Part shown: piece by piece, positions 51,277-64,000 of the stretch
Numbering within the stretch: the stretch's first letter is position 1
How the letters are laid out: every line of letters begins with the position of its first letter
Assembly: GCF_000020145.1 (NCBI RefSeq)
Contig: NC_010644.1
Location: forward strand, 186,001-250,000
Direction of reading: 5' to 3'
DNA: 64,000 bases
Origin: Elusimicrobium minutum Pei191
Lineage (GTDB): Bacteria; Elusimicrobiota; Elusimicrobia; Elusimicrobiales; Elusimicrobiaceae
Translations under genes and position numbers: made by a program
The notes under the pieces: generated by a model
What the model was told of the DNA's origin: nothing
Databases searched by the model: none
What the model saw: only the letters and a program-made list of their open reading frames with translations

Positions 51277-51279
51277 CTA
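51221..51279. repeat. Long imperfect hairpin at end of the radical-SAM-type gene
   Basis: CTAGTATCTAT (51234-51244) pairs with ATAGATACTAG (51259-51269), extended by AGATTAG and CTAATCT outside an asymmetric bulge. No T run follows on either side. It could end transcription, cap a small RNA or serve as a recombination or protein site. Confidence 0.55.
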
Positions 51280-52101
51280 GAATATGTTTGATTGACCTAC
51301 AGAACATACACATTGTTTAGGAGAATTAGAACAGTATGTAGGCTCAGTTACAGTTCCTTCCTTAATGTGATACTGTTTCTTATTTTTCTTACAGAATGTG
51401 ACTACCTTATCTGCCAGTTCATTAAAGAAATTTTTATAATCCTTATACTCAGATACCTGCTTGTTGTAGTTAAGTCTACCAAATATAATTTTATCTACAA
51501 ATGATAACTCTTCCAGTATCTCATCAAAGTTTTGGTCAATTATGTTGGGTGTAGGGTACGGCTCAATACTAACCCATGTTTTAAACCCTTTGTTGTGCAG
51601 ATGGCGTAAAGAATCTATCCTCTTGCTCATAGGTGATGCAAATGGTTCCAGTTTCTTTCTAAATTTATCCTGTATTGTAATTAAGGTTATGCCAAACTCA
51701 TTGTCTTTGCTCAGGTTAGCTAACTCTATAGGCAAAATACCCTTAGTTAAAGCGGTGCACCTAATACCACTCTTATTTAGTTTATCTATAATCTTCAGGC
51801 TCATCTCAGATACTTCTGGGTATTTATACATGAAAGGGTCTGTAGTAAAAGAAAGATGGACAAATTTTATTTTATCTTTGAGCCTAGGTATTTCTCGGTC
51901 AAGTATTTCTAAAGAATTTTCCACTAATTTAGGTTCAAGCCAGTCTTCATAGGTTTTAATCTTGCCAAACCTTTTAGCCATAAGCATAGCATAGCACGGG
52001 TATAAACATCCATGGGAGCAGTTTTCCGCATGATTGATGGTATAATCCCCATACTCAACGCCAGTCTTATATAGAAGTGTCTTTCTTTTAAATTTTTTCA
52101 T
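51277..52101 (-). CDS. SPL-like radical-SAM-type three-Cys protein, partner of TcmP
   Basis: The 274-residue protein has an N-terminal cysteine motif NCSHGCLYPCYA (Cys 28, 32, 36). A TIM-barrel-like pattern follows (FVHLSFTTDPFMYKYPE, ALTKGILPIELA, FGITLITIQD, TWVSIEPYPTPN) as in spore-photoproduct-lyase-like radical SAM proteins. The three Cys are spaced CX3CX3C, one residue more than the canonical CX3CX2C. Three further Cys lie near the C-terminus (YCSNSPKQCVC), which may hold another cluster. It starts 4 bp after tcmP, so the pair is one operon. TcmP proteins are known to occur beside three-Cys-motif proteins; the reaction is not known. Confidence 0.8.
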   Translation of the reverse strand: MKKFKRKTLLYKTGVEYGDYTINHAENCSHGCLYPCYAMLMAKRFGKIKTYEDWLEPKLVENSLEILDREIPRLKDKIKFVHLSFTTDPFMYKYPEVSEMSLKIIDKLNKSGIRCTALTKGILPIELANLSKDNEFGITLITIQDKFRKKLEPFASPMSKRIDSLRHLHNKGFKTWVSIEPYPTPNIIDQNFDEILEELSFVDKIIFGRLNYNKQVSEYKDYKNFFNELADKVVTFCKKNKKQYHIKEGTVTEPTYCSNSPKQCVCSVGQSNIF

Positions 52102-52105
52102 ATAG

Positions 52106-53155
52106 TTATACTTTATTGTATATAATTTCTATTCTATTATCGCGCTTATCATTGATGTAGAGGCTCTTTCCCTTGCGCTTGCAATTAGGCAATTCTTTTA
52201 TACAAACAGTTTTATCATCCTCAAGTTTGCTAAATATTTCATTTGTATATTTTGGCAGCATACCAAGACTTATAGAAAGTTCATACAGTTGTGAATTTGT
52301 TATAGGGTCAGCATTTTTTATTGTGTTTATTAGGGTGTCTGCTTCTTCTTTAAAAGTATCATAAGTCATGGAAAACAAATCACCCTGCTTATCAAAATAC
52401 TTTTCTGCCGCTTCTGCCGCATACAGAAATTTTTCTGCTCCCTTTATATTTTTTGATAGGAAGAATATAACATGCTGGGAGTTGCAGTCCTTATTCTTTA
52501 AACTTTTATAATAGGCAAAATGGGTTCTCATCTTACTCTGAAAAGCACTTCTTATGAGTTGTGCAAAGTCTTCAAGAGTATCGCATTCCTGAGCTTGCTC
52601 CTTAGCAATATCAAAATATTCCAAAAATTGAGCAACGGGCCTGTAGTAAACGTCTTCTTCCTCTCCCTTTAAAAACCTAAAAACATGGTACAGCGGGATG
52701 AAAATAAGAATTTCCAATTTGTCTCTATTAAAAATGTTGTCATAGGTATCTTTATTTAACTGAGTATATCCGAAAGGGTCAATAAAAAGTAAAGCATGCC
52801 CTTTAAACTTTAAAGACTTATTTATAAAAGAGTTGGCGTCCTCATTCGCAATTTTAATAAAAGGGTTATTTGCAACATCTACATTTTTTGACAGAAGTGG
52901 TATTTTTTTAGAATCCAAGTCGTTTAACAGCAAAAGAATTTTTTGGGATTGTAATGGTTTGATAGCATCTACAGCTACCATGGCACTCCCCTTCCCTCCA
53001 TCTTCCGCTACCCCTTGCCCTGCAAACGGTTCTATTACGCTGACATTTGTGGCCCAGTCTTGCGTGTTCATTATTGGGAGATATGCCTTTAGGTACTCCT
53101 CATATATTTTTAGTTTAAGTTTTGTGTGAAATTTGATTTTGCCAGATGTGTCCAT
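52106..53155 (-). CDS. tcmP: Three-Cys-motif partner protein TcmP
   Basis: The 349-residue protein matches the TcmP family pattern. An early HTKLKLKIYEEYLKAYLP is followed by a methyltransferase-like motif I VIEPFAGQG (about 40-48), LNDLDSKK (about 80) and LLFIDPFGYTQL (about 122-133), which takes the place of the DPPY of adenine methylases. C-terminal helices (about 230-320) and a basic end follow. The fold resembles a SAM-dependent methyltransferase, but the catalytic tetrapeptide is DPFG. The family is named only for its partnership with three-Cys proteins, and its function is not established to my knowledge. It is first of two genes, divergent from the type III R-M operon. Confidence 0.85.
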   Translation of the reverse strand: MDTSGKIKFHTKLKLKIYEEYLKAYLPIMNTQDWATNVSVIEPFAGQGVAEDGGKGSAMVAVDAIKPLQSQKILLLLNDLDSKKIPLLSKNVDVANNPFIKIANEDANSFINKSLKFKGHALLFIDPFGYTQLNKDTYDNIFNRDKLEILIFIPLYHVFRFLKGEEEDVYYRPVAQFLEYFDIAKEQAQECDTLEDFAQLIRSAFQSKMRTHFAYYKSLKNKDCNSQHVIFFLSKNIKGAEKFLYAAEAAEKYFDKQGDLFSMTYDTFKEEADTLINTIKNADPITNSQLYELSISLGMLPKYTNEIFSKLEDDKTVCIKELPNCKRKGKSLYINDKRDNRIEIIYNKV

Positions 53156-53191
53156 GTTCTTTTACCCCCAAAAGATAAATACTATAATTTA

Positions 53192-53219
53192 ATTATATCA
53201 CATCTCCCAAAACTGTCCA
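53192..53219 (-). promoter_or_regulatory. Promoter of the tcmP operon
   Basis: On the minus strand TGGACA (53214-53219), 16 bp, then TATAAT (53192-53197), leaving a leader of about 30 nt. Its -35 lies 10 bp from the -35 of the mod promoter, back to back. Confidence 0.65.
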
Positions 53220-53229
53220 GATATTTTAT

Positions 53230-53257
53230 TTGAACATTAATTTATATTTGATAGAAT
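53230..53257 (+). promoter_or_regulatory. Promoter of the mod-OLD-res operon
   Basis: TTGAAC (53230-53235), 16 bp, then TAGAAT (53252-53257), 29 bp before the mod ATG. It is divergent from the tcmP promoter, so one bound regulator or the methylation state of this region could affect both. Confidence 0.5.
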
Positions 53258-53286
53258 GAAATATACACATTGGGCAAGAGGGTACT

Positions 53287-55257
53287 ATGGCAGACAAATT
53301 TAATAAAGAATCTTTAAATATAACAGAAGAAAAGCTAACTCAGTTTAAACAACTATTCCCAGAAGTTTTTAGTGAGGGCAAGGTGGACTTTGAACGCCTT
53401 AAGCTTACCCTTGGGGAACACACTGCAATATCTAATGAACGCTACGTGCTAAACTGGGCTAACAAGAGTGATGCCTTTACCGCCATACAAACCCCAACAA
53501 CCAAAACCCTTTACCCTGCCGTCAAAGAATCAGTCAATTTTGATACCACTCAAAATGTGTTTATAGAGGGTGAGAACCTGGAAGTGTTAAAGATACTCCA
53601 AAAGTCCTACTTTGGCAAAATTAAGATGATATACATTGACCCGCCCTATAACACTGGCAATGACAATTTTATTTACCCAGACAAATTTGCCGAAACTAAA
53701 GAAGAGTACCTTAAAAAAATTAAAGAAAAAGATGAAGAGGGCTACCTGCTAAAAGAAGGCCTCTTCCGCAAAAACTCCAAAGAAAACGGGCAGTTCCACA
53801 GCAACTGGCTTAACATGATGTATCCCAGACTGTTCCTAGCTAAAAACCTGCTTAAAGACGATGGTGTTATTTTTGTGTCCATAGATGACAATGAGGTGCA
53901 TAACCTGCGCCTGTTAATGAATGAAGTGTTTGGAGAAGATAATTTCAAAGCAATTTTCCCCAGAGTTACCAAAAAGGGTGGGAAGTCCTCAGAAGCAACC
54001 GCCAAGAACCATGACTACGTCTTGATGTATTCAAAAAATAATTCTTTTGCAGATATTATAGGGATAGCACATAATGATGATGGTTATAGTAACCAGGATG
54101 AGTTTTTCGAAGAAAGGGGATTTTATAAATTAAATCAGACCCTAGATTATGATTCTTTGGGATGGGTAAAGTCTCTTGACTACCCAATAGAAATTGGAGA
54201 GCATGTTTACTATGCTGGCGGGTCAAAGGAGAAATATGAAGAGCGGCATAGTGGCAAGCACGGACGTGCGGACTGGGGATGGAGATGGAGTAAAGACCTA
54301 TTTGAGTTTGGTTTTAGTAACGGCTTTGTTGAATTAAAAGACTCTGGGAGTAGACCTAGGATATATACAAAAACTTACCAGAATGTAAAAATTGAGAAGG
54401 TCGGCAATAAATATGAAATTATAAACATAGACCGCTCAAAGCCTTTGTCAACACTTGAGTTTATTGAAAATAAATACTCCAACGATAATGCTACAAAGGT
54501 GATTGACGGCGTTATTGGGAAAGGCATTTTTGAATACACTAAGCCTCCAGAACTCATATCACAATTAGCACATTTAATAAATGAAAAAGATTTCTTTGTT
54601 TTGGACTTTTTTGCGGGTTCTGGTACTACTGCTCAGGCTGTAATGGAGTTAAATAAAGAAGACGGTGGGAAGAGAAAATTTATTTGTGTTCAACTGCCAG
54701 AAAAAACAGAAGAGACCTCAGAAGCTTTTAGGGCAGGATACAAAACTATATCAGAAATAAGTGCTGAGCGTATACGCCGTGCCATCAAAAAAATAGAAAC
54801 AGAAACTAAAGCAGATAATACCATGTTTAAGGCCGAAGGCAAGCTGGACCTTGGGTTCAAGTTTTATAAATTAAAAGAATCTAACTTTAAAACATGGCGC
54901 AGTGATATGGTGTCCACTAAAGAAGACCTGGCAACCACTATCAATATGTTTGAAGACGCATTAAAGGACGGTGCAAAAGAAACCAATATTTTATGTGAAC
55001 TATTGCTAAAACGGGGCTATGACCTTAACGTCCCTGTGGAAACAGCGGAAGTGGACAAAACCAAAATATACATAGTTAACAACGGGGAGCTGGTGGTATG
55101 CCTGGAGAAACTGTCAGACAAAGTTATATCCAAAATACTAGAGATTAAGCCCCAAAGGTGTTTAATGCTAGATAGTTTATTTGACGGCAAAGACAGCTTA
55201 AAAACCAACACCGTCTTACAACTCCAAGACGCAGAAATAGACCTAACGGTGGTATGA
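53287..55257 (+). CDS. mod: Type III restriction-modification methyltransferase subunit (Mod)
   Basis: The 656-residue protein has DPPYNTGND (motif IV, residues 118-126) before FFAGSGTTAQAV (SAM motif I, about 441), the order of the beta class of N6-adenine methyltransferases to which type III Mod enzymes belong. The variable middle (about 220-420) should hold the target recognition domain. Mod methylates one strand of the site and is needed for cleavage by Res. The expected partner res lies two genes downstream, separated by an OLD-family gene. The next ATG is 1 nt after this stop. Confidence 0.95.
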   Translation: MADKFNKESLNITEEKLTQFKQLFPEVFSEGKVDFERLKLTLGEHTAISNERYVLNWANKSDAFTAIQTPTTKTLYPAVKESVNFDTTQNVFIEGENLEVLKILQKSYFGKIKMIYIDPPYNTGNDNFIYPDKFAETKEEYLKKIKEKDEEGYLLKEGLFRKNSKENGQFHSNWLNMMYPRLFLAKNLLKDDGVIFVSIDDNEVHNLRLLMNEVFGEDNFKAIFPRVTKKGGKSSEATAKNHDYVLMYSKNNSFADIIGIAHNDDGYSNQDEFFEERGFYKLNQTLDYDSLGWVKSLDYPIEIGEHVYYAGGSKEKYEERHSGKHGRADWGWRWSKDLFEFGFSNGFVELKDSGSRPRIYTKTYQNVKIEKVGNKYEIINIDRSKPLSTLEFIENKYSNDNATKVIDGVIGKGIFEYTKPPELISQLAHLINEKDFFVLDFFAGSGTTAQAVMELNKEDGGKRKFICVQLPEKTEETSEAFRAGYKTISEISAERIRRAIKKIETETKADNTMFKAEGKLDLGFKFYKLKESNFKTWRSDMVSTKEDLATTINMFEDALKDGAKETNILCELLLKRGYDLNVPVETAEVDKTKIYIVNNGELVVCLEKLSDKVISKILEIKPQRCLMLDSLFDGKDSLKTNTVLQLQDAEIDLTVV

Positions 55258-55258
55258 T

Positions 55259-56995
55259 ATGAAAATTAAAAATGTCCATATTCATAACTTTAGGTCCATA
55301 CTAGATGCCGATTTCCCCTTGGAATCATATTCCATACTTGCGGGAGAAAATAATTCAGGAAAGACAACTTTTATTAATGCTTTACGAGTTTTTTATGAAG
55401 ATATAAAATTTAACAAGGCAGAAGACTTTCCTAAAATGGAAACATCTGATGTAGAGTCTTGGATAGAGGTTGAGTTCATAACTGTACAAGAAGAGCAAGA
55501 CTTATTAAAAGAAGAATATAGAAGTGCAGACAAGATACTAAGGGTTAGAAAGTATCTAGCATCCTCCTCTATAGAAATAAAGTCAACTCAAAGTAATATC
55601 TATGGGTACGAAAATGGTGTTTTGTCTACCACGCTCTTCTATGGTGCTAAAAATATATCCCAAGCAAAGTTGGGTAATATTTTGTATATCCCAGAGTTAA
55701 GTCGCACCGAAGAAGTTATGAATTTATCAAAAGCAGCGTCTCCATTAAAAAGCATTGTAGAATATGTTCTTGGTAAGATATTAAAAGCAAGTTCTTCTTT
55801 TTCTGAGCTAAATAAGGCCTTTGAGGTGTTTAACAAAGAATTCCAAGCAGAAAGTTCCCCAGAGGGATTATCTATTAACAAAATGAAAGAGGATATAAAC
55901 TCTGAGCTTAAAGACTGGGGTGTTAGTTTGGGTATAAATATCAATGCGGTCTCTCCAGAAGTTATAACAAAAAATCTCCTCTCTCATTATTTGCAGGATT
56001 CTAAGCTGGGTGAACAGGAGATAAACACAAGCAGTGTCGGGCAAGGGCTTCAGAGACACATTATTTATTCTTTAATAAAAATAGCATCTAAATACCAAGA
56101 CCCTAAAGAAATTAAAAAGAAAGATTTTTCTCCAGATTTTACGCTCATTTTATTTGAAGAGCCTGAAGCCTTTTTACATCCGTCGCAACAACAGATTTTA
56201 AACATAGATTTAGAGAGTATTGCTAAGGGAGATAATGAGCAAGTAATAGCAACTACACATTCCCCAATATTTGTTTCTAAAAATATAAACAATTTGCCCT
56301 CACTAATAAGATTGAGTAGGGAAGAGCGAAATAAATGGGAAACCAAAAGTTTTAATATTTCTAAAGAAAAACTGGAATTATTGCTGTCAGATAATGCGGG
56401 GCTTGAAGCCTGCTTCAAAAGCACTGTCGCCTTACCTGCTTGTCAAGAAGAACTGAAGAAAGCTTTGGCAAAATCTCTGGCCTCGGGTACATTGGAAGGT
56501 TTTTCTGGAAGTGATAAGGAAATTATGAATATTTGCATGTGGCTTGACACAGAACGAGCAAATGCTTTTTTTTCAAAACATGTAATAATATGTGAGGGGG
56601 CAACAGAAAAAGTTCTATTAGAGTATTTATTTGCAACGCATTGGAAAGATTTTGCTAAAAAACACATATATTGTCTGGATTCTTTAGGTAAGTTTAACAT
56701 ACATAGATTTATAAACTTATTTGATTCCCTAGGAATATATCATTCTGTTGTTTATGATTCAGATAACAATCGTGGTGTTCATGAAATAGTTAATAAATTT
56801 ATTCAGAGTAAAAAAAGTGCGTACACACAAAACCTGTTAGCCTTATCTGGCGATGTTGAGTCTGAATTTGGGATTACTAAGCCAGCTAATACGCATTTGA
56901 AACCTGCTAACTTATTGTTGCATTTAATTAAAAATAAAATTACCCAGAAACAAATAGACTCCTTTAAGGAGAAGTTTAATTATCTTTCTATATAG
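55259..56995 (+). CDS. OLD-family ATPase with TOPRIM nuclease domain, inside the type III R-M operon
   Basis: The 578-residue protein has an N-terminal ABC-type ATPase: Walker A GENNSGKTTF (29-38), signature region SVGQGLQRHIIYSL (about 260), Walker B LILFEEPEAFLHP (about 295-307) and the H-loop ATTHSPIFVS. The C-terminal TOPRIM has VIICEGATEK (acidic Glu, about 445) and VVYDSDNNRG (DxD, about 500). This is the OLD (overcoming lysogenization defect) nuclease layout, known in anti-phage systems such as P2 Old and Gabija GajA. It is not a normal part of type III R-M. Gaps of 1 and 6 nt to its neighbours show co-translation with mod and res. No GajB-type helicase is beside it. Confidence 0.85.
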   Translation: MKIKNVHIHNFRSILDADFPLESYSILAGENNSGKTTFINALRVFYEDIKFNKAEDFPKMETSDVESWIEVEFITVQEEQDLLKEEYRSADKILRVRKYLASSSIEIKSTQSNIYGYENGVLSTTLFYGAKNISQAKLGNILYIPELSRTEEVMNLSKAASPLKSIVEYVLGKILKASSSFSELNKAFEVFNKEFQAESSPEGLSINKMKEDINSELKDWGVSLGININAVSPEVITKNLLSHYLQDSKLGEQEINTSSVGQGLQRHIIYSLIKIASKYQDPKEIKKKDFSPDFTLILFEEPEAFLHPSQQQILNIDLESIAKGDNEQVIATTHSPIFVSKNINNLPSLIRLSREERNKWETKSFNISKEKLELLLSDNAGLEACFKSTVALPACQEELKKALAKSLASGTLEGFSGSDKEIMNICMWLDTERANAFFSKHVIICEGATEKVLLEYLFATHWKDFAKKHIYCLDSLGKFNIHRFINLFDSLGIYHSVVYDSDNNRGVHEIVNKFIQSKKSAYTQNLLALSGDVESEFGITKPANTHLKPANLLLHLIKNKITQKQIDSFKEKFNYLSI

Positions 56996-57001
56996 GTACT
57001 T

Positions 57002-59665
57002 ATGAAACTACATTTTGATGCTAAGCAGCCGTACCAGCAAGACGCTATGCGGGCTATAATAGACGTGTTTAAAGGGCAACCTATAAATAATGGGGACTTT
57101 GAAGCGTCTTTTGGTGGCGTGGATGGGCTGGCACTATCTATAATGGGTGTTAAGAATAATATTGTACTTTCAGAAGAACAAATTTTAAAAAATGTGTGTG
57201 AAGTGCAAGAAAAAAATGGCCTAGATATTGCCACTAAACTGGAAGGGCTAAACTTCACCATAGAAATGGAAACAGGTACAGGTAAAACCTATGTTTACCT
57301 TAGAACCATTTATGAGCTGAACAAACAGTACGGCTTTAAAAAATTTGTGATTGTGGTGCCCAGCATAGCCATAAAAGAAGGTGTGTTAAAAAACCTGGAA
57401 ATTACGCATGAGCACTTCCAAGGTTTGTATGAAAACACTTCAGTAAAATTTCAGGTTTACGACTCTGCTAAAGTATCTGCCCTGCGTGGGTTTGCTGATA
57501 GTAATAACATTGAAATACTTGTTATAAACATAGACTCATTTGCCAAGGATGAAAACGTTGTAAATAATGAAAACGATAAACTGACTGGCAAAAAACCAAT
57601 AGAGTTTATTCAGGCTACTAACCCCATAGTTATTGTGGACGAACCGCAAAATATGGAAACTGAAATACGTAAGCGTGCCATAGCAAGACTTAACCCTGCT
57701 TGCACGTTAAGATACTCCGCCACGCATAAAAACATGTATAACCTGCTTTATAGTTTGGACCCTGTTAAAGCCTATGACCTAGGGCTTGTTAAACAGATAG
57801 AAGTGGATAGCGTGATAACAGAAAACGACCATAACAGGGCATTTATTGAACTGGTGGAATTTAAACAAAATAAAAACAGTGTGTTGGCTAAAGTTAAGAT
57901 TGAGTGTGAGAGCCCCTCTGGCGTTAAGTCAAAGGTGGTAACCATAGGCGCAGATGAAAAGTATGACCTCTACCAACTTTCTGGACAGCGTGAAATATAC
58001 AAAGATAATTTTGTGCCAATATCTTTAGACGCTGGGGAAGGCTTTGTGGAGTTTGGCAATGGCTTAAGAGTATCTCTGGGACAAAGCAACAGCCAAGTGA
58101 AAGATGACATAATGAAAACGCAGATAGAGCGCACCATAGCCGAACATTTAGCCAAAGAAAAACAACTGCGCCCACAAGGCATTAAAGTATTGTCTTTGTT
58201 TTTTATTGATAGAGTGGCAAACTATAGGGCCTGGGATGAAAGTGGAAACATTGTGGAAGGCAAAATACACAAATGGTTTGAAGAAATTTATAAAAATATT
58301 GTCAGTAAATCTGGCAATAGCAACATTATGAGCCAGGATATAAAAGAGATACATAATGGCTATTTCTCCCAAGATAAAAAGGGACACCTGAAAGACTCCT
58401 CAGAGAGCAGGGAAACAAAAGACGATGCTGATACATACCAGCTTATTATGAAAGATAAGGAACGCTTGCTGGATGTTAATAATCCCCTGCGCTTTATATT
58501 TAGCCACTCTGCCCTTAGGGAAGGCTGGGACAACCCTAATGTGTTTCAGATATGCACGTTAAATGAAACCAGGTCTGAAATGAAAAAGAGGCAAGAAATA
58601 GGCCGTGGATTACGCCTTGCTGTTAATGCAGATGGTATGCGAATTTATGACAAAAGTATAAATAAACTAACAGTTGTAGCTAACGAAACTTATGCCGATT
58701 TTTCCGCAAACTTACAAAAAGAAATAGAAGATGATTGCGGTGTGGCCTTCCAGGGTAGGATTAAAGATAAAAGAGCAAGAAAGAAGGTGGGCCTTAAGAA
58801 AGGATTTGAACTGGATGCTAAATTTATTGAACTCTGGGACAAGATTAAACACAAAACTACGTATAAGGTGGACTATGACTCCCAGGACCTTATAAAAGCC
58901 GCAGGAAAGGCCTTGAGGGACCTGGAAACAGAGATAAAAGCCCCTATCATCAGAACTGTTAAAACTGGCGTCAATATAACTAGCGAAGGCGTATTTGGGA
59001 CCGTTAAAGGCAGCACAACAAAGGCTATGGCAGCTGGTTTTGAGATACCTAATATCATTGACTATATACAAAGCAGGCTTAGCTCCAAATTAACCCGTAA
59101 AACTATATTGGAAATTATCAAGGCCTCTGGCAGGATGGAGGATGTATTAAAGAACCCACAAATGTTTTTAGACCTAGCTATAGGCAAAATAAACAATGTA
59201 ATGAATGAGCTTATGGTAGACGGCATTAAATATGAAAAGATAGCAGGGCAAGAATGGCAGATGCTTTTGTTTAAGGAACAGGAGATAGAGTCTTATATTG
59301 AAAACCTGTACCCTATCAAGAACCAGGATAAGACAATAGCGGATAGCATTGTTATTGATTCCTTATCCAGCCCCGAGCGTCAGTTTGCCGAAGATTGCGA
59401 GAATAATGATAACGTGGACTTTTTTATAAAACTACCCGACTGGTTTAAAATAAGAACGCCAATGGGCACTTATAATCCAGACTGGGCGTTAATCTACAAA
59501 AATGATAAGAGGATATACTTTGTAGCAGAAACAAAATCTACCCTATCACTGGATAGATTGCGAACGGAAGAGCAGTTAAAAATAAAGTGTGGTAAGGCAC
59601 ATTTTAAAGACTTTAAAGATGTTGAATTTAAGCACGTTACGAAAGTGGGTGATTTAATTTCTTAA
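57002..59665 (+). CDS. res: Type III restriction enzyme helicase-nuclease subunit (Res)
   Basis: The 887-residue SF2 enzyme has Walker A METGTGKTYVYLRT (about 88), DExx box VIVDEPQNME (about 209), SALREGWDNPNVF (motif V) and RQEIGRGLRLAV (motif VI, about 528). The C-terminal PD-(D/E)xK nuclease reads YNPDWALIY and FVAETKS (about 822-846). Res translocates or slides after recognising two unmethylated sites and cuts DNA with Mod. Both catalytic parts look intact, so restriction is probably active. It is last of the three-gene operon. Confidence 0.95.
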   Translation: MKLHFDAKQPYQQDAMRAIIDVFKGQPINNGDFEASFGGVDGLALSIMGVKNNIVLSEEQILKNVCEVQEKNGLDIATKLEGLNFTIEMETGTGKTYVYLRTIYELNKQYGFKKFVIVVPSIAIKEGVLKNLEITHEHFQGLYENTSVKFQVYDSAKVSALRGFADSNNIEILVINIDSFAKDENVVNNENDKLTGKKPIEFIQATNPIVIVDEPQNMETEIRKRAIARLNPACTLRYSATHKNMYNLLYSLDPVKAYDLGLVKQIEVDSVITENDHNRAFIELVEFKQNKNSVLAKVKIECESPSGVKSKVVTIGADEKYDLYQLSGQREIYKDNFVPISLDAGEGFVEFGNGLRVSLGQSNSQVKDDIMKTQIERTIAEHLAKEKQLRPQGIKVLSLFFIDRVANYRAWDESGNIVEGKIHKWFEEIYKNIVSKSGNSNIMSQDIKEIHNGYFSQDKKGHLKDSSESRETKDDADTYQLIMKDKERLLDVNNPLRFIFSHSALREGWDNPNVFQICTLNETRSEMKKRQEIGRGLRLAVNADGMRIYDKSINKLTVVANETYADFSANLQKEIEDDCGVAFQGRIKDKRARKKVGLKKGFELDAKFIELWDKIKHKTTYKVDYDSQDLIKAAGKALRDLETEIKAPIIRTVKTGVNITSEGVFGTVKGSTTKAMAAGFEIPNIIDYIQSRLSSKLTRKTILEIIKASGRMEDVLKNPQMFLDLAIGKINNVMNELMVDGIKYEKIAGQEWQMLLFKEQEIESYIENLYPIKNQDKTIADSIVIDSLSSPERQFAEDCENNDNVDFFIKLPDWFKIRTPMGTYNPDWALIYKNDKRIYFVAETKSTLSLDRLRTEEQLKIKCGKAHFKDFKDVEFKHVTKVGDLIS

Positions 59666-60227: not shown

Positions 60228-60233
60228 GTGGAA

Positions 60234-61418
60234 ATGGCAAAGCAAAAAGAAGAAATAGGGGTGTTTAAAAAGGTGGCGGTTTTTCCTAGAAGAATTATTA
60301 AACATGTTGGCAAATATTACCCATTTGACCCTGATAATCCTTCAGGCTCCCTTTGGGAAATGGAGCTATATCTGGCATTGCTAATTGTTTCCAAGGATAA
60401 TCTGTACCCTTATCTTTCTTTTCCGTACGATTTGTTAATGAGGGATTTTAAAAGATATCTATATCATATGTTAGCAACTCGGCTTCTTTCTGTTACCGTG
60501 GCTACTCAGTTTGTTGCTAAGACTTATGCCGAGCTTGAAAAATATAAAAAAGAGGGGGGACCGACAGAAAAGATTGTCCACATCTGGTATAAAGACAAAT
60601 ATTATTTTATGGACTTCTTGGACAGATACCTTAGAGCGTATGAAAAAGGAGTATTTGACGGAGAGTATAATAGTAAAAATTATAGTACTAAATTAAGTTT
60701 GCGAGCAACAGTTAATCTCCTCAAGGCATACAGTAAAGTGCATGGAAGTAAATTTACCTTGAGGCCAGAATGGGAAGATATAGATGGTAAACTTTTGAAG
60801 GTTGACCCCAGAAGTAGGGTAATGACAGATTTGTTGTTACTGGAAAATAAAAGGTTAATTTCCATTAGCAGAGTGAGTGCAGATGATTTTGAGGAGTGGT
60901 GCAAACCTCGTATTGTAATGGTTAAGGATATGAAAATAAGAGCTAACATAGAGCTGCTTAAACCTATTGAAGAAATTGAGAAAGAAATTTTTGAGGTTAA
61001 GGCAGAAAAAGGGTTCCTCGGGCTAGTTGTAAATGAAGAGAACGAAGTTTTTTATAATGGCACAAAGATTAAAGCATTTTCATCCTCGGCAGAGCAACAA
61101 ATAGGCTTATTAAAACTTCTTATATCCAAAAAAGGTGTTGCCGCTACCAGAGAGGCAGTATACTCTGCTTTGGGTTATACTATGAAAAGCAAAAAAGCTC
61201 CCAAACGCCATAATGAATATGATGATGGCTATGATGAAATAGAAGGTACATATAAACGTGGTCCCAAAATAAACAAAAGAGAGGCGTTTAGAGATAGATT
61301 AAAAAAACTTATAAAAGAGGTTCAGTCTAAACTTCCCGACGGTAGTGTGATAATTAAGAACACAGAAAAAGAAGGTGTTTTTATAGTTTCAGGGGAGACC
61401 AAGGTATCCCATAAGTAA
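60234..61418 (+). CDS. Mobile-element protein with winged-helix-like C-terminus
   Basis: The ATG at 60234 (8 nt after GGAGG) is preferred to a GTG at 60228, which is too close to the site. The protein has about 394 residues and no signal or membrane segment. Its helical N-terminal two thirds are unrecognised. The C-terminus (about 275-390: VFYNGTKIKAFSSSAEQQIG, GVAATREAVYSAL, FRDRLKKLIKEVQSKL, then a final hairpin EKEGVFIVSG) follows the pattern of OmpR-type winged-helix DNA-binding domains. It may regulate or initiate element functions. It has its own terminator. Confidence 0.6.
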   Translation: MAKQKEEIGVFKKVAVFPRRIIKHVGKYYPFDPDNPSGSLWEMELYLALLIVSKDNLYPYLSFPYDLLMRDFKRYLYHMLATRLLSVTVATQFVAKTYAELEKYKKEGGPTEKIVHIWYKDKYYFMDFLDRYLRAYEKGVFDGEYNSKNYSTKLSLRATVNLLKAYSKVHGSKFTLRPEWEDIDGKLLKVDPRSRVMTDLLLLENKRLISISRVSADDFEEWCKPRIVMVKDMKIRANIELLKPIEEIEKEIFEVKAEKGFLGLVVNEENEVFYNGTKIKAFSSSAEQQIGLLKLLISKKGVAATREAVYSALGYTMKSKKAPKRHNEYDDGYDEIEGTYKRGPKINKREAFRDRLKKLIKEVQSKLPDGSVIIKNTEKEGVFIVSGETKVSHK

Positions 61419-61445
61419 CATTTAAGTTCTAGCTATACAATAGAC

Positions 61446-61477
61446 CGTTTAAGGATAAAACCTTAAGCGGTTTTTTT
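61446..61477 (+). terminator. Terminator after the winged-helix-like gene
   Basis: CCGTTTAAGG / CCTTAAGCGG stem (one G-T pair) with an ATAAAA loop and seven T residues. Confidence 0.88.
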
Positions 61478-61567
61478 ATTGTATCCCTGTCAAATCTCCC
61501 CGTTTTCCTCCCTCTTTTTTAGAGGGAAAAGTGATTTTTGTTCCCACTAGTTGAATTGGTTTCTTTT

Positions 61568-61602
61568 CCTTACTGCTTCGCACAAAGCGAAAGCCAGTAA
61601 GG
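61568..61602 (+). promoter_or_regulatory. Hairpin overlapping the ribosome binding site of the replication gene
   Basis: CCTTACTG (61568-61575) pairs with CAGTAAGG (61595-61602), and the inner CTTCGC pairs with GCGAAAG. The AAGGAG site (61599-61604) for the ATG at 61613 lies partly inside the 3' arm, so folding would hide it. Confidence 0.6.
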
Positions 61603-61612
61603 AGCCACAACA

Positions 61613-62683
61613 ATGGACAGAATCAAAATAGCAGTACCAGTAGCAGAAGTAAAAGAATTATACACGGGAGCAATAACGGCCTTGCAAGATAACAGAGATA
61701 AAGGCCCCGCAATACAGCCCGTTTTTAGAGACTATAGTTGGTGCGGATATATAATGATTGATATTTGCGTGCCTAAAAGTTTGTTTCATAATAGCTTGGA
61801 GGAGCATACAGATAGATGTTTAAACTGTTTGATTGAACTTATAAGAATTGAAGCACGGGAATCTAATGGGCTGGAAATATCACATGACGCTATAAAATTT
61901 GCTGAAGTCTGGTATCTTGAGTACGGCAAAAATATAGTTATTCCCAAAAGACACTCCATGCATGCTTGTCTAGACAAAATTGCCTTGACACTTGCAGGGC
62001 AACACCCAACCCTTTCCAAGGTTAAATATTATTCTAGGGTGGGTAATAATGGCTATCAGGTGGGGCTCCACACAAAAGAATATGAAATTTGTGCCTACGA
62101 TAAGACCACAGCCGCTATCTATAATGGCACAGGGAACGATAAGGAGATTTTCAAAGACTTGTTAGATAGGCACAATTTACAAGTTTTAAGGGTGGAAGTT
62201 AAATTATTCAAGAGCAAGTATATTAAAAAGCATTTAGGGAAGTTGAAATATATGCACAGCTTCAAATTATTTGACTTGTTTAATTCCATCCTTGAACAGC
62301 GAGCCCTAAAGCATTTTTGGGCAGCGATTGAGGATGCTCTACCTAAAGTAAAATACTCCAAAGTGGCCTTGATAAAGCAAATAGATGCTGCTGCCAAGAA
62401 CGATGTCAGTATTAACGATATTATTTTTAAAGTAGGCATGGATTATTTAGAGCACTCTTTGGGGAGGACGGTATTAAAACAGCTTTTAGTACCAACCTCA
62501 GCCAAGATAAAAGGTAAGGCAAGAGAATCACAACATAGCACGTTGTTGAAGAAGCGGAAGGAAATACAGAAAAAATTCAAGACCAAAAAGTTTTATATTG
62601 CCAGTAGAATAAATAACTATCTTAATGAGTTTAAACCCATTTGGATAGACAAGGAAAATGACGACATTGAGGGGGTAATGTGA
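61613..62683 (+). CDS. Gene II-like rolling-circle replication initiation protein
   Basis: The 356-residue protein resembles the phage/plasmid replication protein (gene II/X, Phage_CRI) family. Features are a beta-rich N-terminal part with WCGYIMIDICVPKS, the central HSMHACLDKIAL, EICAYDKTTAAIYN, and the conserved LQVLRVEVKLFKSKYIKKHL (about 183-202), plus a basic C-terminus. Such proteins nick one strand at the origin through a tyrosine; I cannot assign the catalytic Tyr. The similarity call is moderate. Its start codon is under a hairpin, and its stop overlaps the next small gene by 1 nt. Confidence 0.7.
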   Translation: MDRIKIAVPVAEVKELYTGAITALQDNRDKGPAIQPVFRDYSWCGYIMIDICVPKSLFHNSLEEHTDRCLNCLIELIRIEARESNGLEISHDAIKFAEVWYLEYGKNIVIPKRHSMHACLDKIALTLAGQHPTLSKVKYYSRVGNNGYQVGLHTKEYEICAYDKTTAAIYNGTGNDKEIFKDLLDRHNLQVLRVEVKLFKSKYIKKHLGKLKYMHSFKLFDLFNSILEQRALKHFWAAIEDALPKVKYSKVALIKQIDAAAKNDVSINDIIFKVGMDYLEHSLGRTVLKQLLVPTSAKIKGKARESQHSTLLKKRKEIQKKFKTKKFYIASRINNYLNEFKPIWIDKENDDIEGVM

Positions 62684-62903: not shown

Positions 62904-63083
62904 ATGAAAAACACACAATTTTTTACCATAGAAGAGGTTGCAGAACTTCTTAAAGTCAGTGAAATGACTATATACCGCTATATCAAGGCCAGGAAACTTA
63001 CCGCCTACAAATTAGGGCGAAAGGCTTACCGTATAAACAATACCGACTTAAAAGCCTTCTTAAATAAAGTAAAAACAAAATAG
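62904..63083 (+). CDS. Excisionase/MerR-like helix-turn-helix protein
   Basis: The 59-residue protein is a single HTH_17/excisionase domain: FTIEEVAELLKVSEMTIYRY, then the wing with KLTAYKLGRKAYRINNTDLK. Proteins of this type act as excisionases (recombination directionality factors) or small regulators on integrative elements. It stands 8 bp before the serine recombinase, so it probably controls the direction of recombination or recombinase expression. Confidence 0.85.
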   Translation: MKNTQFFTIEEVAELLKVSEMTIYRYIKARKLTAYKLGRKAYRINNTDLKAFLNKVKTK

Positions 63084-63091
63084 GAACTTTT

Positions 63092-64000
63092 ATGAAAAAT
63101 TATATAGCGAAAAAAGCAGTCATTTTATCAAGAGTATCAAGCTCTTCACAAGAAGACGGGCAATCTCTGGACGCTCAGCTTGAAAAAACACGTGAATATA
63201 GCAAACAAAAAGCTTTTAAAGTATTGAAAGAATACAGGATAATAGAGTCTTCTACAAGAGGTAATCGTACAGAGTTTAATGAAATGTTGGATTTTGTTAA
63301 AGCACAAAAAGAAGCTATTGCAATAATTGTTTATAACGTAGACCGTATGCAAAGAAGATTTAATGAGTCTGTATCTTTGGAGCCTCTTATAAAAAAAGGG
63401 AAATTAGAGCTGCATTTTGTAACTACGGGGCTAGTACTTCATAAAGATTCCCCTGCAAGTGACTTTATGGTCTGGGATTTTAATGTTGTGGGTGCAAGGT
63501 CTTATGTGCTAATGCTTTCGGAAAGCACAAAACGTGGGGTGTCTCGCAAAATTTCTCTTGGACAGCTTCCAGGACGTGCTCCTATTGGATATAAGAACAT
63601 AGGCACAGGTAAGAACAAGACTATTGTTATAGATGAGCTTATCGCTCCCATACTAAAAGAGGTATTTGAAATGCACGCTACTGGCAACTACTCATTATTA
63701 GAGCTTGTGAGGGTATTTAACCAGAAGTGCAAGGAAATAGGCTGTGGTAAAAAAACGTCTAAAAATCCTTTATGGCGTGCCTTTCGCAATCCTTTTTACT
63801 ATGGGGTAATGAAAATAAAAGGACTGGAGTTCCCGCATATTTATGAACCATTAATTACTAAAGAACTATTTGATAGAAACCAAGCCGTAATAAGAGGACA
63901 TAAAAGGCAGAATACAAAATGTGCCTGTAAAGAAAACGTGTTTAGGGGTATAGTTAAATGTAAAGATTGCGGAACTATTATAAGCCCTTATACCAAAGAT
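63092..64000 (+). CDS. Large serine recombinase, 3' end outside window
   Basis: The frame is open from an ATG at 63092 to the window end (303 residues). The N-terminal resolvase domain has ILSRVSSSSQEDGQSLDAQ (catalytic Ser about residue 16 in RVS) and NVDRMQRRF (about 84). A recombinase domain follows (LPGRAPIGYKNIG, NPFYYGVM, about 165-250) and the start of a zinc ribbon (VKCKDCGTI), as in phage and conjugative-element integrases. It should integrate and excise the element at att sites. The C-terminal zinc ribbon and coiled coil lie beyond the window. Confidence 0.92.
   Translation, partial: MKNYIAKKAVILSRVSSSSQEDGQSLDAQLEKTREYSKQKAFKVLKEYRIIESSTRGNRTEFNEMLDFVKAQKEAIAIIVYNVDRMQRRFNESVSLEPLIKKGKLELHFVTTGLVLHKDSPASDFMVWDFNVVGARSYVLMLSESTKRGVSRKISLGQLPGRAPIGYKNIGTGKNKTIVIDELIAPILKEVFEMHATGNYSLLELVRVFNQKCKEIGCGKKTSKNPLWRAFRNPFYYGVMKIKGLEFPHIYEPLITKELFDRNQAVIRGHKRQNTKCACKENVFRGIVKCKDCGTIISPYTKD

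What the first reader, a model, noticed from the sequence alone, without database searches (positions are those of the whole stretch)
51277..59665. Divergent five-gene defence locus: TcmP plus radical-SAM-type protein opposite mod-OLD-res
Two tight operons start back to back from one 131-bp region: tcmP plus an SPL-like three-Cys protein to the left, and a type III R-M operon with an OLD nuclease in the middle to the right, all on an element with a serine recombinase. Seen: gene order, spacing of 1-6 nt within operons, and paired promoters. Known: R-M and OLD nucleases act against phage; TcmP has no settled function. Inferred: the TcmP pair may modify nucleic acid or nucleotides and may work with, or be guarded by, the R-M system.
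Basis: partly seen in the sequence, partly recalled or inferred. Interest (0 to 1): 0.85.

Follow-up and report, generated by a model that had tools for sequence, protein, structure and literature searches.

The report
Mobile defence cassette with exchangeable partner
A mobile stretch of bacterial DNA carries a restriction system with a second nuclease tucked inside it, next to a two-gene enzyme pair in which one partner stays much the same across bacteria while the other is repeatedly replaced, which suggests a mix-and-match nucleic-acid-modifying module that is sometimes packed together with restriction systems.

Summary
The five genes, their spacing and the 131-bp divergent region are real. 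The right operon is a type III R-M system with an OLD nuclease in the mod-res gap. In this phylum that gap is a cargo slot: 13 of 27 other mod-res loci hold other genes there. The left pair is TcmP (PADLOC candidate PDC-M30A) plus a radical SAM protein of spore-photoproduct-lyase fold; the candidate's usual partner, DUF5131, is missing, so it is a variant. TcmP folds like RlmJ and Trm1. TcmP directly precedes this radical SAM gene in 102 of 112 loci; 24 of 112 (21 by cross-locus hits alone) have R-M genes in the same gene run. The most interesting result is partner exchange: radical SAM proteins are 64% identical at the median, their TcmPs 19%; near-identical radical SAM genes carry very different TcmPs, and related TcmPs occur with both enzyme families. 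Phage defence, substrate and chemistry are inferred. Against an accessory-gene control the R-M enrichment is only suggestive.

The parts
51277..52101 (-). SPL-like radical SAM protein, 274 aa, CX3CX3C at residues 28-36; the conserved partner of the pair
   Evidence: Radical_SAM 2.8e-11; AF2 pLDDT 86.7; spore photoproduct lyase Foldseek 5.2e-7, VIA Z 18.7, next fold 16.1
52106..53155 (-). TcmP, 349 aa, RlmJ/Trm1-like methyltransferase fold with EPFAGQG and DPF motifs; the exchangeable partner
   Evidence: TIGR04474 121.5 bits, cut-off 53; PDC-M30A 2e-48; AF2 pLDDT 89.1; RlmJ VIA Z up to 16.1, next fold 13.4
53156..53286 (.). 131-bp divergent intergenic region with promoter-like sites on both strands
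   Evidence: left 11/12 with TG; right 9/12 and 10/12; no excess over shuffles in the region scanned
53287..55257 (+). mod, type III N6/N4 methyltransferase, 656 aa
   Evidence: N6_N4_Mtase 8.5e-31; MTase_III 8.6e-186; DPPY and FAGSG
55259..56995 (+). OLD-family ATPase-TOPRIM nuclease, 578 aa, cargo in the mod-res slot
   Evidence: AAA_15 3.8e-28 and OLD-like_TOPRIM 8.8e-17; PADLOC Old 1e-53
57002..59665 (+). res, type III restriction subunit, 887 aa
   Evidence: ResIII 6.6e-18, RE_endonuc 4.2e-35; REase_III 1.4e-288; PD-ExK-like motif
63092..64000 (+). serine recombinase of the carrier element (519 aa in full; runs past the window end)
   Evidence: CcrB and XisF models hit below cut-off; 3' end overlaps tRNA-Leu in L084

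Best explanation
The locus is a mobile defence cassette of separable modules. Module 1 is a type III R-M system whose mod-res gap serves as a cargo slot, here filled by an OLD nuclease that most likely acts as a second line when restriction fails or is blocked. Module 2 is a two-subunit enzyme: an SPL-fold radical SAM protein, well conserved, supplies radical chemistry, while TcmP, an RlmJ/Trm1-like methyltransferase-fold protein, is the exchangeable half that probably selects (and may also methylate) the nucleic-acid target. Shown here: gene content, folds (predicted), the usual TcmP-then-rSAM order, repeated exchange of TcmP families, and repeated linkage to R-M genes. Inferred: activity against phage, the substrate (RNA or DNA), the division of labour between the subunits, and any functional coupling to R-M.
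For: Families. Folds. Pair: TcmP directly upstream on the same strand in 102 of 112 loci; the called ORFs overlap in 65 of those 102 and lie within 30 nt in 90. R-M in the same gene run: 24 of 112, 22 of 87 clusters at 90% rSAM identity, 21 of 112 by cross-locus hits. 0 of 48 control contig regions (859 kb) hold any such gene against 8 of 30 pair loci from the same 30 genomes. Genome-level: PF19778 res in 8 of 26 TcmP genomes and 41 of 314 others, p 0.036. Exchange: median identity rSAM 0.64, TcmP 0.19; 35 locus pairs, not independent of each other, with rSAM 0.78 or more but TcmP under 0.25; nucleotide junctions at the TcmP/rSAM border; 37 changes of TcmP family on the rSAM tree, minimum 8; related TcmPs with DUF5131 or SPL-like partner: 42% over 364 aa (L058 and L154), 63% over 257 aa (L072 and L125). 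Cargo slot: 13 of 27 other mod-res loci. Print: PDC-M30 predicted in 32 strains of a 100-strain P. aeruginosa panel, 68.8% of them phage-resistant (PMC10855318, passages).
Against: No phage phenotype for a TcmP pair was found. 88 of 112 loci show no R-M gene in the same run by my queries, and 7 of 112 have DNA upstream but no TcmP there. Against an accessory-gene control the excess is not significant within about 10 kb (21/80 vs 2/20, p 0.15) and borderline in the same run (11/80 vs 0/20, p 0.11; 24/112 vs 0/20, p 0.024; by cross-locus hits 10/80, p 0.20, and 21/112, p 0.042). The 17 R-M query proteins came from the window and from pair neighbourhoods, so some bias remains, and the control contigs were picked by number, not at random. 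In the phylum 1 of 26 TcmP genomes has PF19778 res within 20 kb. OLD in the mod-res slot was seen only in the window; an OLD-like ATPase follows res in L090, and none of the other OLD-like matches shares a contig with a PF19778 match. TcmP lacks the second proline of DPPY, so catalysis is not assured. The radical SAM tree is a quick one: 45 of its 95 inner branches have low support.
Confidence: 0.5

Rival explanations
1. Plain hitch-hiking: R-M, OLD and the TcmP pair are unrelated cargo that gather on mobile elements, with no working link between the two divergent operons. (This overlaps with the best explanation, which also treats them as separate modules; the odds are not exclusive.)
For: Recombinase-linked loci also carry methylases (2 of 20); no R-M gene was found in the pair's gene run in 88 of 112 loci; in this phylum the pair mostly lies away from PF19778 res.
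Against: R-M genes sit in the same same-strand run in 24 of 112 pair loci, some with the pair inside an R-M operon (mod-TcmP-rSAM-res in L134 and L156), against 0 of 20 recombinase runs.
Confidence: 0.4
2. The pair is a guard of restriction, like PrrC beside a type I system: when a phage blocks R-M, TcmP-rSAM damages or modifies host tRNA or rRNA and stops the infection.
For: PrrC embedded in a type IC locus is set off when restriction is inhibited (PMC12707154, passage); TcmP resembles RNA methyltransferases; an AAA_13 protein (PDC-S06, weak PrrC match) occupies the mod-res slot in L092, with a look-alike in L096.
Against: In the window the pair is a separate divergent operon; most pairs have no R-M gene in their run; I found no report of toxicity in the searches made.
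Confidence: 0.15
3. The pair modifies the element's own DNA (a base hypermodification) so that it escapes host or rival nucleases; it protects the element rather than the cell.
For: SPL acts on DNA bases (established knowledge) and is the closest fold; the pair occurs on contigs classed as viral (31 viral-contig loci).
Against: A dedicated methyltransferase (mod) is already present in the window; TcmP's best fold matches act on RNA.
Confidence: 0.15
4. The pair is a DNA-repair or housekeeping function of mobile elements (SPL-like lesion reversal) with no role in immunity.
For: SPL-fold radical SAM.
Against: The close link to a fast-exchanging methyltransferase-fold partner is not what a generic repair enzyme would be expected to show; R-M linkage.
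Confidence: 0.1

Closest known systems
PADLOC phage-defence candidates PDC-M30 and PDC-M41 (TcmP + DUF5131)
   Same: TcmP first, three-Cys protein second, adjacent; window TcmP matches PDC-M30A at 2e-48. The two candidates share what looks like one B family: three DUF5131 partners tested match both M30B and M41B at 1e-111 or better, again one enzyme with different TcmPs.
   Different: The window's enzyme matches the B models only at 3e-4 and 2e-4; it belongs to the SPL-like CX3CX3C family instead of DUF5131, whose motif is CX6CX2C in 14 of 14 looked at.
Embedded genes in R-M loci (PrrC in type IC, DarTG2 in type I; 'guilt-by-embedding')
   Same: A second defence gene sits inside an R-M operon (OLD between mod and res here; the pair between mod and res in L134 and L156).
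   Different: Type III or type III-like instead of type I, and the slot contents vary between relatives. The published work is cited from passages; Payne et al. 2024 itself was not seen.
Spore photoproduct lyase
   Same: Closest solved fold of the radical SAM partner (VIA Z 18.7, 230 residues, rmsd 3.2).
   Different: CX3CX3C cluster motif, 14-16% identity, nearly always next to TcmP (102 of 112).
RlmJ (23S rRNA m6A2030) and Trm1 (tRNA m2,2G26) methyltransferases
   Same: Closest folds of TcmP; motifs I and IV align to RlmJ (weak E 0.019).
   Different: DPF in the window instead of DPPY; further helices and strands after residue 261 that few of the matches cover; identity 12-14%.
Type III R-M and OLD family nuclease
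   Same: The domains of both are present.
   Different: OLD between mod and res was seen in none of the 27 other mod-res loci looked at.

Membership tests
PDC-M30 (PADLOC candidate) | gene A matches PDC-M30A | tested here: met
   2e-48
PDC-M30 (PADLOC candidate) | gene B matches PDC-M30B (DUF5131-type) | tested here: not met
   3.2e-4, 18.3 bits; three DUF5131 partners give 2.8e-118 to 3.5e-113
PDC-M30 (PADLOC candidate) | protection against phage | not testable with these tools
   needs plating assays
TcmP (TIGR04474) | score over curated cut-off | tested here: met
   121.5 bits, cut-off 53
Radical SAM superfamily | Pfam PF04055 over gathering score | tested here: met
   44.3 bits, cut-off 29.5
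Radical SAM superfamily | canonical CX3CX2C cluster motif (recalled; variants are known by recall) | tested here: not met
   CX3CX3C in the window and in 102 of 103 rows
Spore photoproduct lyase | SPL fold as closest solved structure | tested here: met
   VIA Z 18.4-18.7, next fold 16.1
Spore photoproduct lyase | lesion-reversing activity | not testable with these tools
   needs biochemistry
Radical SAM mobile pair protein B (TIGR04470) | score over curated cut-off | tested here: not met
   38.3 bits, cut-off 410
RlmJ / Trm1 methyltransferases | fold | tested here: met
   RlmJ VIA Z 15.5-16.1 (16.4 for the DUF519 protein 2oo3); Trm1 Foldseek 5.7e-6, Z 13.1, the latter level with other methyltransferases
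RlmJ / Trm1 methyltransferases | DPPY motif of RlmJ | tested here: not met
   DPF in the window; aligned to DPPY
Type III R-M | mod methyltransferase and res helicase-nuclease with intact motifs | tested here: met
   (res Walker A read by eye only)
Type III R-M | restriction of unmodified DNA | not testable with these tools
   needs assays
OLD nuclease | AAA ATPase plus TOPRIM domain with motifs | tested here: met
OLD nuclease | assignment to one of the described OLD classes | not tested
   not attempted; the direct neighbours are mod and res

The most novel reading that the evidence does not exclude
TcmP systems are a mix-and-match immune enzyme: a small set of conserved three-Cys radical enzymes (SPL-like or DUF5131) works with an open-ended set of methyltransferase-fold TcmP subunits that are swapped by recombination at the gene border, the way specificity subunits of type I R-M are. 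TcmP would decide what is attacked or marked, the radical enzyme would do the same chemistry each time, and R-M operons would be a preferred carrier.
Probability: 0.35. Interest if true: 0.82.

Novelty: new variant of a known kind. Interest (0 to 1): 0.58.

Why it matters
TcmP is annotated in many genomes, and I found no described function in the searches made. The exchange pattern gives a handle that can be tested directly: keep one radical SAM gene, swap TcmPs and see whether the target or the phage range changes. It also suggests that DUF5131 and the SPL-like protein stand in for one another, and that models which require DUF5131 will miss this branch of pairs. The mod-res cargo slot gives a place to look for further defence genes.

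Tried and rejected
Rejected: (1) type III- or OLD-specific association of TcmP: R-M neighbours are of several types and PF19778 res lies near TcmP in 1 of 26 phylum genomes. (2) OLD-in-slot as a recurrent unit: no other case among the mod-res loci fetched (L090 has an OLD-like ATPase after res), no shared contig between the OLD-like matches and the res matches, and no relative of this OLD found in viral contigs. (3) Viperin-like nucleotide chemistry: viperin folds rank below SPL (Z 15.1 against 18.7). (4) A duplicated attachment site at the left end: none found with short-word blastn against the right end, so the left border of the element is unknown. (5) Plasmid search with the radical SAM protein gave only distant relatives, 9 records, none over 80% of the query. 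(6) PDB profile search with the radical SAM alignment gave one irrelevant weak hit.

Limits: gene calls in scripts are greedy ORF calls from the first start codon, so small genes, overlaps and masked neighbours are unreliable (the DUF5131 gene expected in L080 is hidden by an antisense ORF and not counted). The TcmP of L072, one of the cross-pairing cases, is split over two frames (64 and 258 aa), so that case may be a decaying gene or a sequencing fault; L058 is intact. Dropped rows: 12 of 60 control regions shorter than 6 kb; of the 10 of 112 loci without TcmP directly upstream, 3 are at contig starts and 7 are not; the 21 weakest of 52 PF19778 matches were not fetched. The tool kept 80 of 437 genome contigs relatives. 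Rfam, PHROGs and the viral fold library were not searched. That the window is Elusimicrobium minutum Pei191 is recalled from genome size only.
Full report
WHAT IS THERE. The five ORFs and the back-to-back layout are as described: radical SAM 51277-52101(-), TcmP 52106-53155(-), then 131 bp, then mod 53287-55257, OLD 55259-56995 and res 57002-59665, all (+), with gaps of 4, 1 and 6 nt. Domain searches identify each one. Motifs of mod, OLD, TcmP and the res nuclease are in place (my Walker A pattern missed the GTGKT of res, which is visible in the translation). Promoter-like sites exist on both strands, but the stretch scanned shows no excess over shuffles. Downstream lie two ORFs without a match over a cut-off (60228-61418, 61613-62683), a small excisionase-like helix-turn-helix ORF (62904-63083, read by eye) and a serine recombinase whose 3' end overlaps a tRNA-Leu gene just past the window. 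The genome is one contig of 1,643,562 bases.

THE R-M OPERON AND ITS SLOT. I looked for the type III endonuclease domain PF19778 in 340 genomes of the phylum: 52 matches in 49 genomes. I fetched the 30 strongest besides the window. In 27 both mod and res could be seen, and in 13 of these other genes lie between them. Ten of these cargo proteins were run against Pfam and five against PADLOC: AAA_21 plus DUF4276, which PADLOC calls HEC-01 (L087; look-alike by eye in L093); AAA_13, PDC-S06 with a weak PrrC match (L092; look-alike in L096); Schlafen AlbA_2 (L088, L089, L094; look-alikes in L091, L097, L098); DUF4062 (L102); RhuM (L103); ParB_N next to a protein without a Pfam match and with a radical-SAM-like CX3CX2C by eye (L095). 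L094 and L097 are near-copies. The OLD gene of the window is thus one state of a variable slot; it was the only OLD in the slot, though L090 has an OLD-like ATPase 23 bp after res. This resembles genes embedded in type I R-M: PrrC in a type IC locus, which is set off when restriction is blocked (PMC12707154, passage), and DarTG2 between hsdS and hsdR (PMC12255303, passages). For genes between mod and res in print I made two searches: one search found no paper; one search found one review, whose passages that I saw do not describe such genes. Subscription papers and preprints are not held.

THE PAIR IS A VARIANT OF A KNOWN CANDIDATE. TcmP matches PADLOC's PDC-M30A at 2e-48, but the radical SAM protein matches PDC-M30B and M41B only at 3e-4 and 2e-4, while three DUF5131 partners of other TcmPs match at 9e-112 to 2e-121. 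PDC systems were found by 'guilt-by-embedding' and most are untested (PMC10855318 and PMC12988326, passages). PMC10855318 reports PDC-M30 in 32 strains of a 100-strain P. aeruginosa panel, 68.8% of them resistant. In S. meliloti a TcmP gene (SMa2243) is listed next to the phage-defence gene hna (SMa2245) with a similar rise in expression (PMC12445080, passage). In this phylum 26 of 340 genomes have TcmP: 9 pair it with the SPL-like CX3CX3C protein, 15 with a DUF5131-type protein by its motif (three of them run match TIGR04471 below its cut-off, three match PADLOC's B models), one was not resolved (L080) and one has no three-Cys gene downstream (L062).

FOLDS. AlphaFold2 gave TcmP at pLDDT 89.1 and the radical SAM protein at 86.7. 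TcmP: Foldseek best Trm1 (5.7e-6) and RlmJ (7.0e-6); VIA Z 16.4 for the DUF519 protein 2oo3 and 15.5-16.1 for RlmJ, against 13.4 for the next fold; Trm1 has 13.1, level with other methyltransferases. A profile search aligns its motifs I and IV to RlmJ (E 0.019, weak). RlmJ and Trm1 act on exocyclic amines in RNA (established knowledge). D126-P127 is invariant in the 48 aligned TcmPs; the window has F next. A D/N-P-F/Y/W-G pattern was found in 44 of 103 TcmPs and not in 59, some of which have DPY or DPA without the glycine. Radical SAM: spore photoproduct lyase Z 18.4-18.7 over 230-233 residues, next pyruvate formate-lyase activating enzyme at 16.1. So the folds point to nucleic acid, TcmP more to RNA and the partner more to DNA; neither proves a substrate.

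RECURRENCE. The radical SAM alignment (9 sequences) found 437 relatives in genome contigs, of which the tool kept 80, and 31 in viral contigs; with one phage record this makes 112 loci from many phyla at 51-74% identity apart from one at 32%. TcmP lies directly upstream on the same strand in 102 of 112; of the other ten, three sit at a contig start and seven do not; the two called ORFs overlap in 65 of 102. The three-Cys motif is CX3CX3C in 102 of 103 rows.

LINK TO R-M. With 17 query proteins taken from the window and from pair neighbourhoods, counting cross-locus hits only, R-M genes lie within about 10 kb in 21 of 80 genome loci, in 8 of the 30 loci whose genomes also gave controls, and (within 8 kb) in 11 of 31 viral loci; 0 of 48 control regions (859 kb, starts of contigs picked by number) of those 30 genomes had any (Fisher 2.5e-4 for 8/30 against 0/48). 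Against accessory genes the contrast is weaker: 2 of 20 recombinase-linked regions had a methylase, so p is 0.28 for 8/30 and 0.15 for 21/80. A stricter count, R-M in the same uninterrupted same-strand run with gaps up to 100 bp, gives 24 of 112 (22 of 87 clusters at 90% identity; 11 of 80 genome loci) against 0 of 20 recombinase runs, p 0.024 and 0.11. Three of the 24 (L140, L208, L220) rest on a query meeting itself; without them it is 21 of 112 and 10 of 80, p 0.042 and 0.20, though Pfam confirms the genes of L140 and L208. Orders seen: mod-res-TcmP-rSAM (L133, L222), mod-TcmP-rSAM-res (L134, L156), TcmP-rSAM-mod with or without res (10 loci; TcmP off the contig in L217), and runs with hsdM, GmrSD, Dcm or Dam. 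L157 has res, mod and an AAA_15 ATPase on one strand and TcmP-rSAM on the other, like the window in outline, but two ORFs (one resolvase-like by eye) lie between and the ATPase has no TOPRIM match. In the phylum L064 has TcmP-DUF5131-mod-res, L077 has hsdR and L078 hsdM next to the pair, and L080 has hsdR near TcmP. At genome level 8 of 26 TcmP genomes have PF19778 res against 41 of 314 others (p 0.036), but only the window has the two within 20 kb. So linkage to R-M is real but not special to type III, and its excess over other mobile cargo is suggestive rather than settled.

PARTNER EXCHANGE. This was not in the finding and is the strongest new result. Over 5253 locus pairs the median identity is 0.64 for the radical SAM protein and 0.19 for TcmP. 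Among pairs of loci with radical SAM identity of 0.78 or more, 35 have TcmP below 0.25 and 66 do not (the pairs share loci). Nucleotide comparison shows the borders: L143 and L153 share upstream stretches at 66-91% and the radical SAM gene with what follows at 93%, but hold different TcmP genes, with identity resuming within 16 bp of the radical SAM start; L148 and L130 are alike over the radical SAM gene almost exactly; L190 and L180 from 78 bp before it. TcmPs fall into 9 families at 30% single linkage. On the radical SAM tree these need 37 changes (least possible 8, shuffled mean 62.8); well-supported branches force at least 6, 8, 3, 4 and 3 changes for the five largest families, each taken alone; 45 of 95 inner branches of this quick tree have low support. 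So the label is clustered, but far from one origin per family. In 14 DUF5131 pairs of the phylum the same holds: medians 0.55 and 0.20 over 91 comparisons. Exchange also goes the other way: the TcmP of L058 (DUF5131 partner) is 42% identical over 364 residues to that of L154 (SPL-like partner), and that of L072 (DUF5131 partner, but split over two frames) is 63% identical over 257 residues to that of L125 (SPL-like partner); L072 and L125 are both PDC-M41A. The genomes are mostly metagenome-assembled, so single cases could be chimeras; the number of cases and the gene-border junctions within contigs argue against that as a general cause.

HOW IT MOST LIKELY WORKS. Shown: composition, order, predicted folds, exchange, linkage. 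Inferred: the radical enzyme is the constant chemical half and TcmP the half that chooses the target and perhaps primes it by methylation; OLD is a backup nuclease of the R-M system; the pair is a separate module whose benefit adds to R-M. I give about even odds to this whole picture. Hitch-hiking without any working link is the main rival.

NOVELTY AND VERDICT. The type III R-M and OLD are ordinary members of known families in an uncommon arrangement. The pair is a variant of PDC-M30 with another enzyme. I found no paper that describes TcmP exchange, the SPL-like partner or the pair's function in the searches made (seen as listings; passages of PMC12445080, PMC12429752, PMC10855318, PMC12988326; PMC13092281 searched for six terms, none found). 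One search listed 30 of 394 papers and 12 of 60. Most subscription papers and all preprints are outside that library, and Payne et al. 2024 could not be read.

Noticed in passing
L157:1-10750: Another genome has type III res and mod with an AAA_15 ATPase on one strand and TcmP plus the SPL-like radical SAM gene on the other, with two ORFs between.
   Followed up: partly
L189:7947-9982; also L195, L207, L209, L210: Some loci carry two different TcmP genes in tandem before one radical SAM gene, followed by mod and, where the stretch reaches, res; AIPR follows in L189 and L209.
   Followed up: partly
L084:4701-4784 (just past the window): The recombinase gene's 3' end overlaps a tRNA-Leu(caa) gene; no repeat of it was found at the left end of the element.
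   Followed up: partly
L084:15219-19705: A 1195-aa Cas9-like ORF followed by a Cas1-like ORF lies downstream of the window (named by eye, not by a search).
   Followed up: no
L026, L027 and L096 (one genome, G288): In one small genome (about 1.1 Mb) TcmP holds a stop codon and mod and res are in pieces, so these genes appear to be decaying there.
   Followed up: no
L095:7322-9837: A mod-res slot holds a ParB-like gene and a protein with a radical-SAM-like Cys motif and no Pfam match at 0.001.
   Followed up: no
window 60228-62683: Two ORFs of the element (396 and 356 aa) have no match over a cut-off in Pfam, NCBIfam or PADLOC.
   Followed up: no
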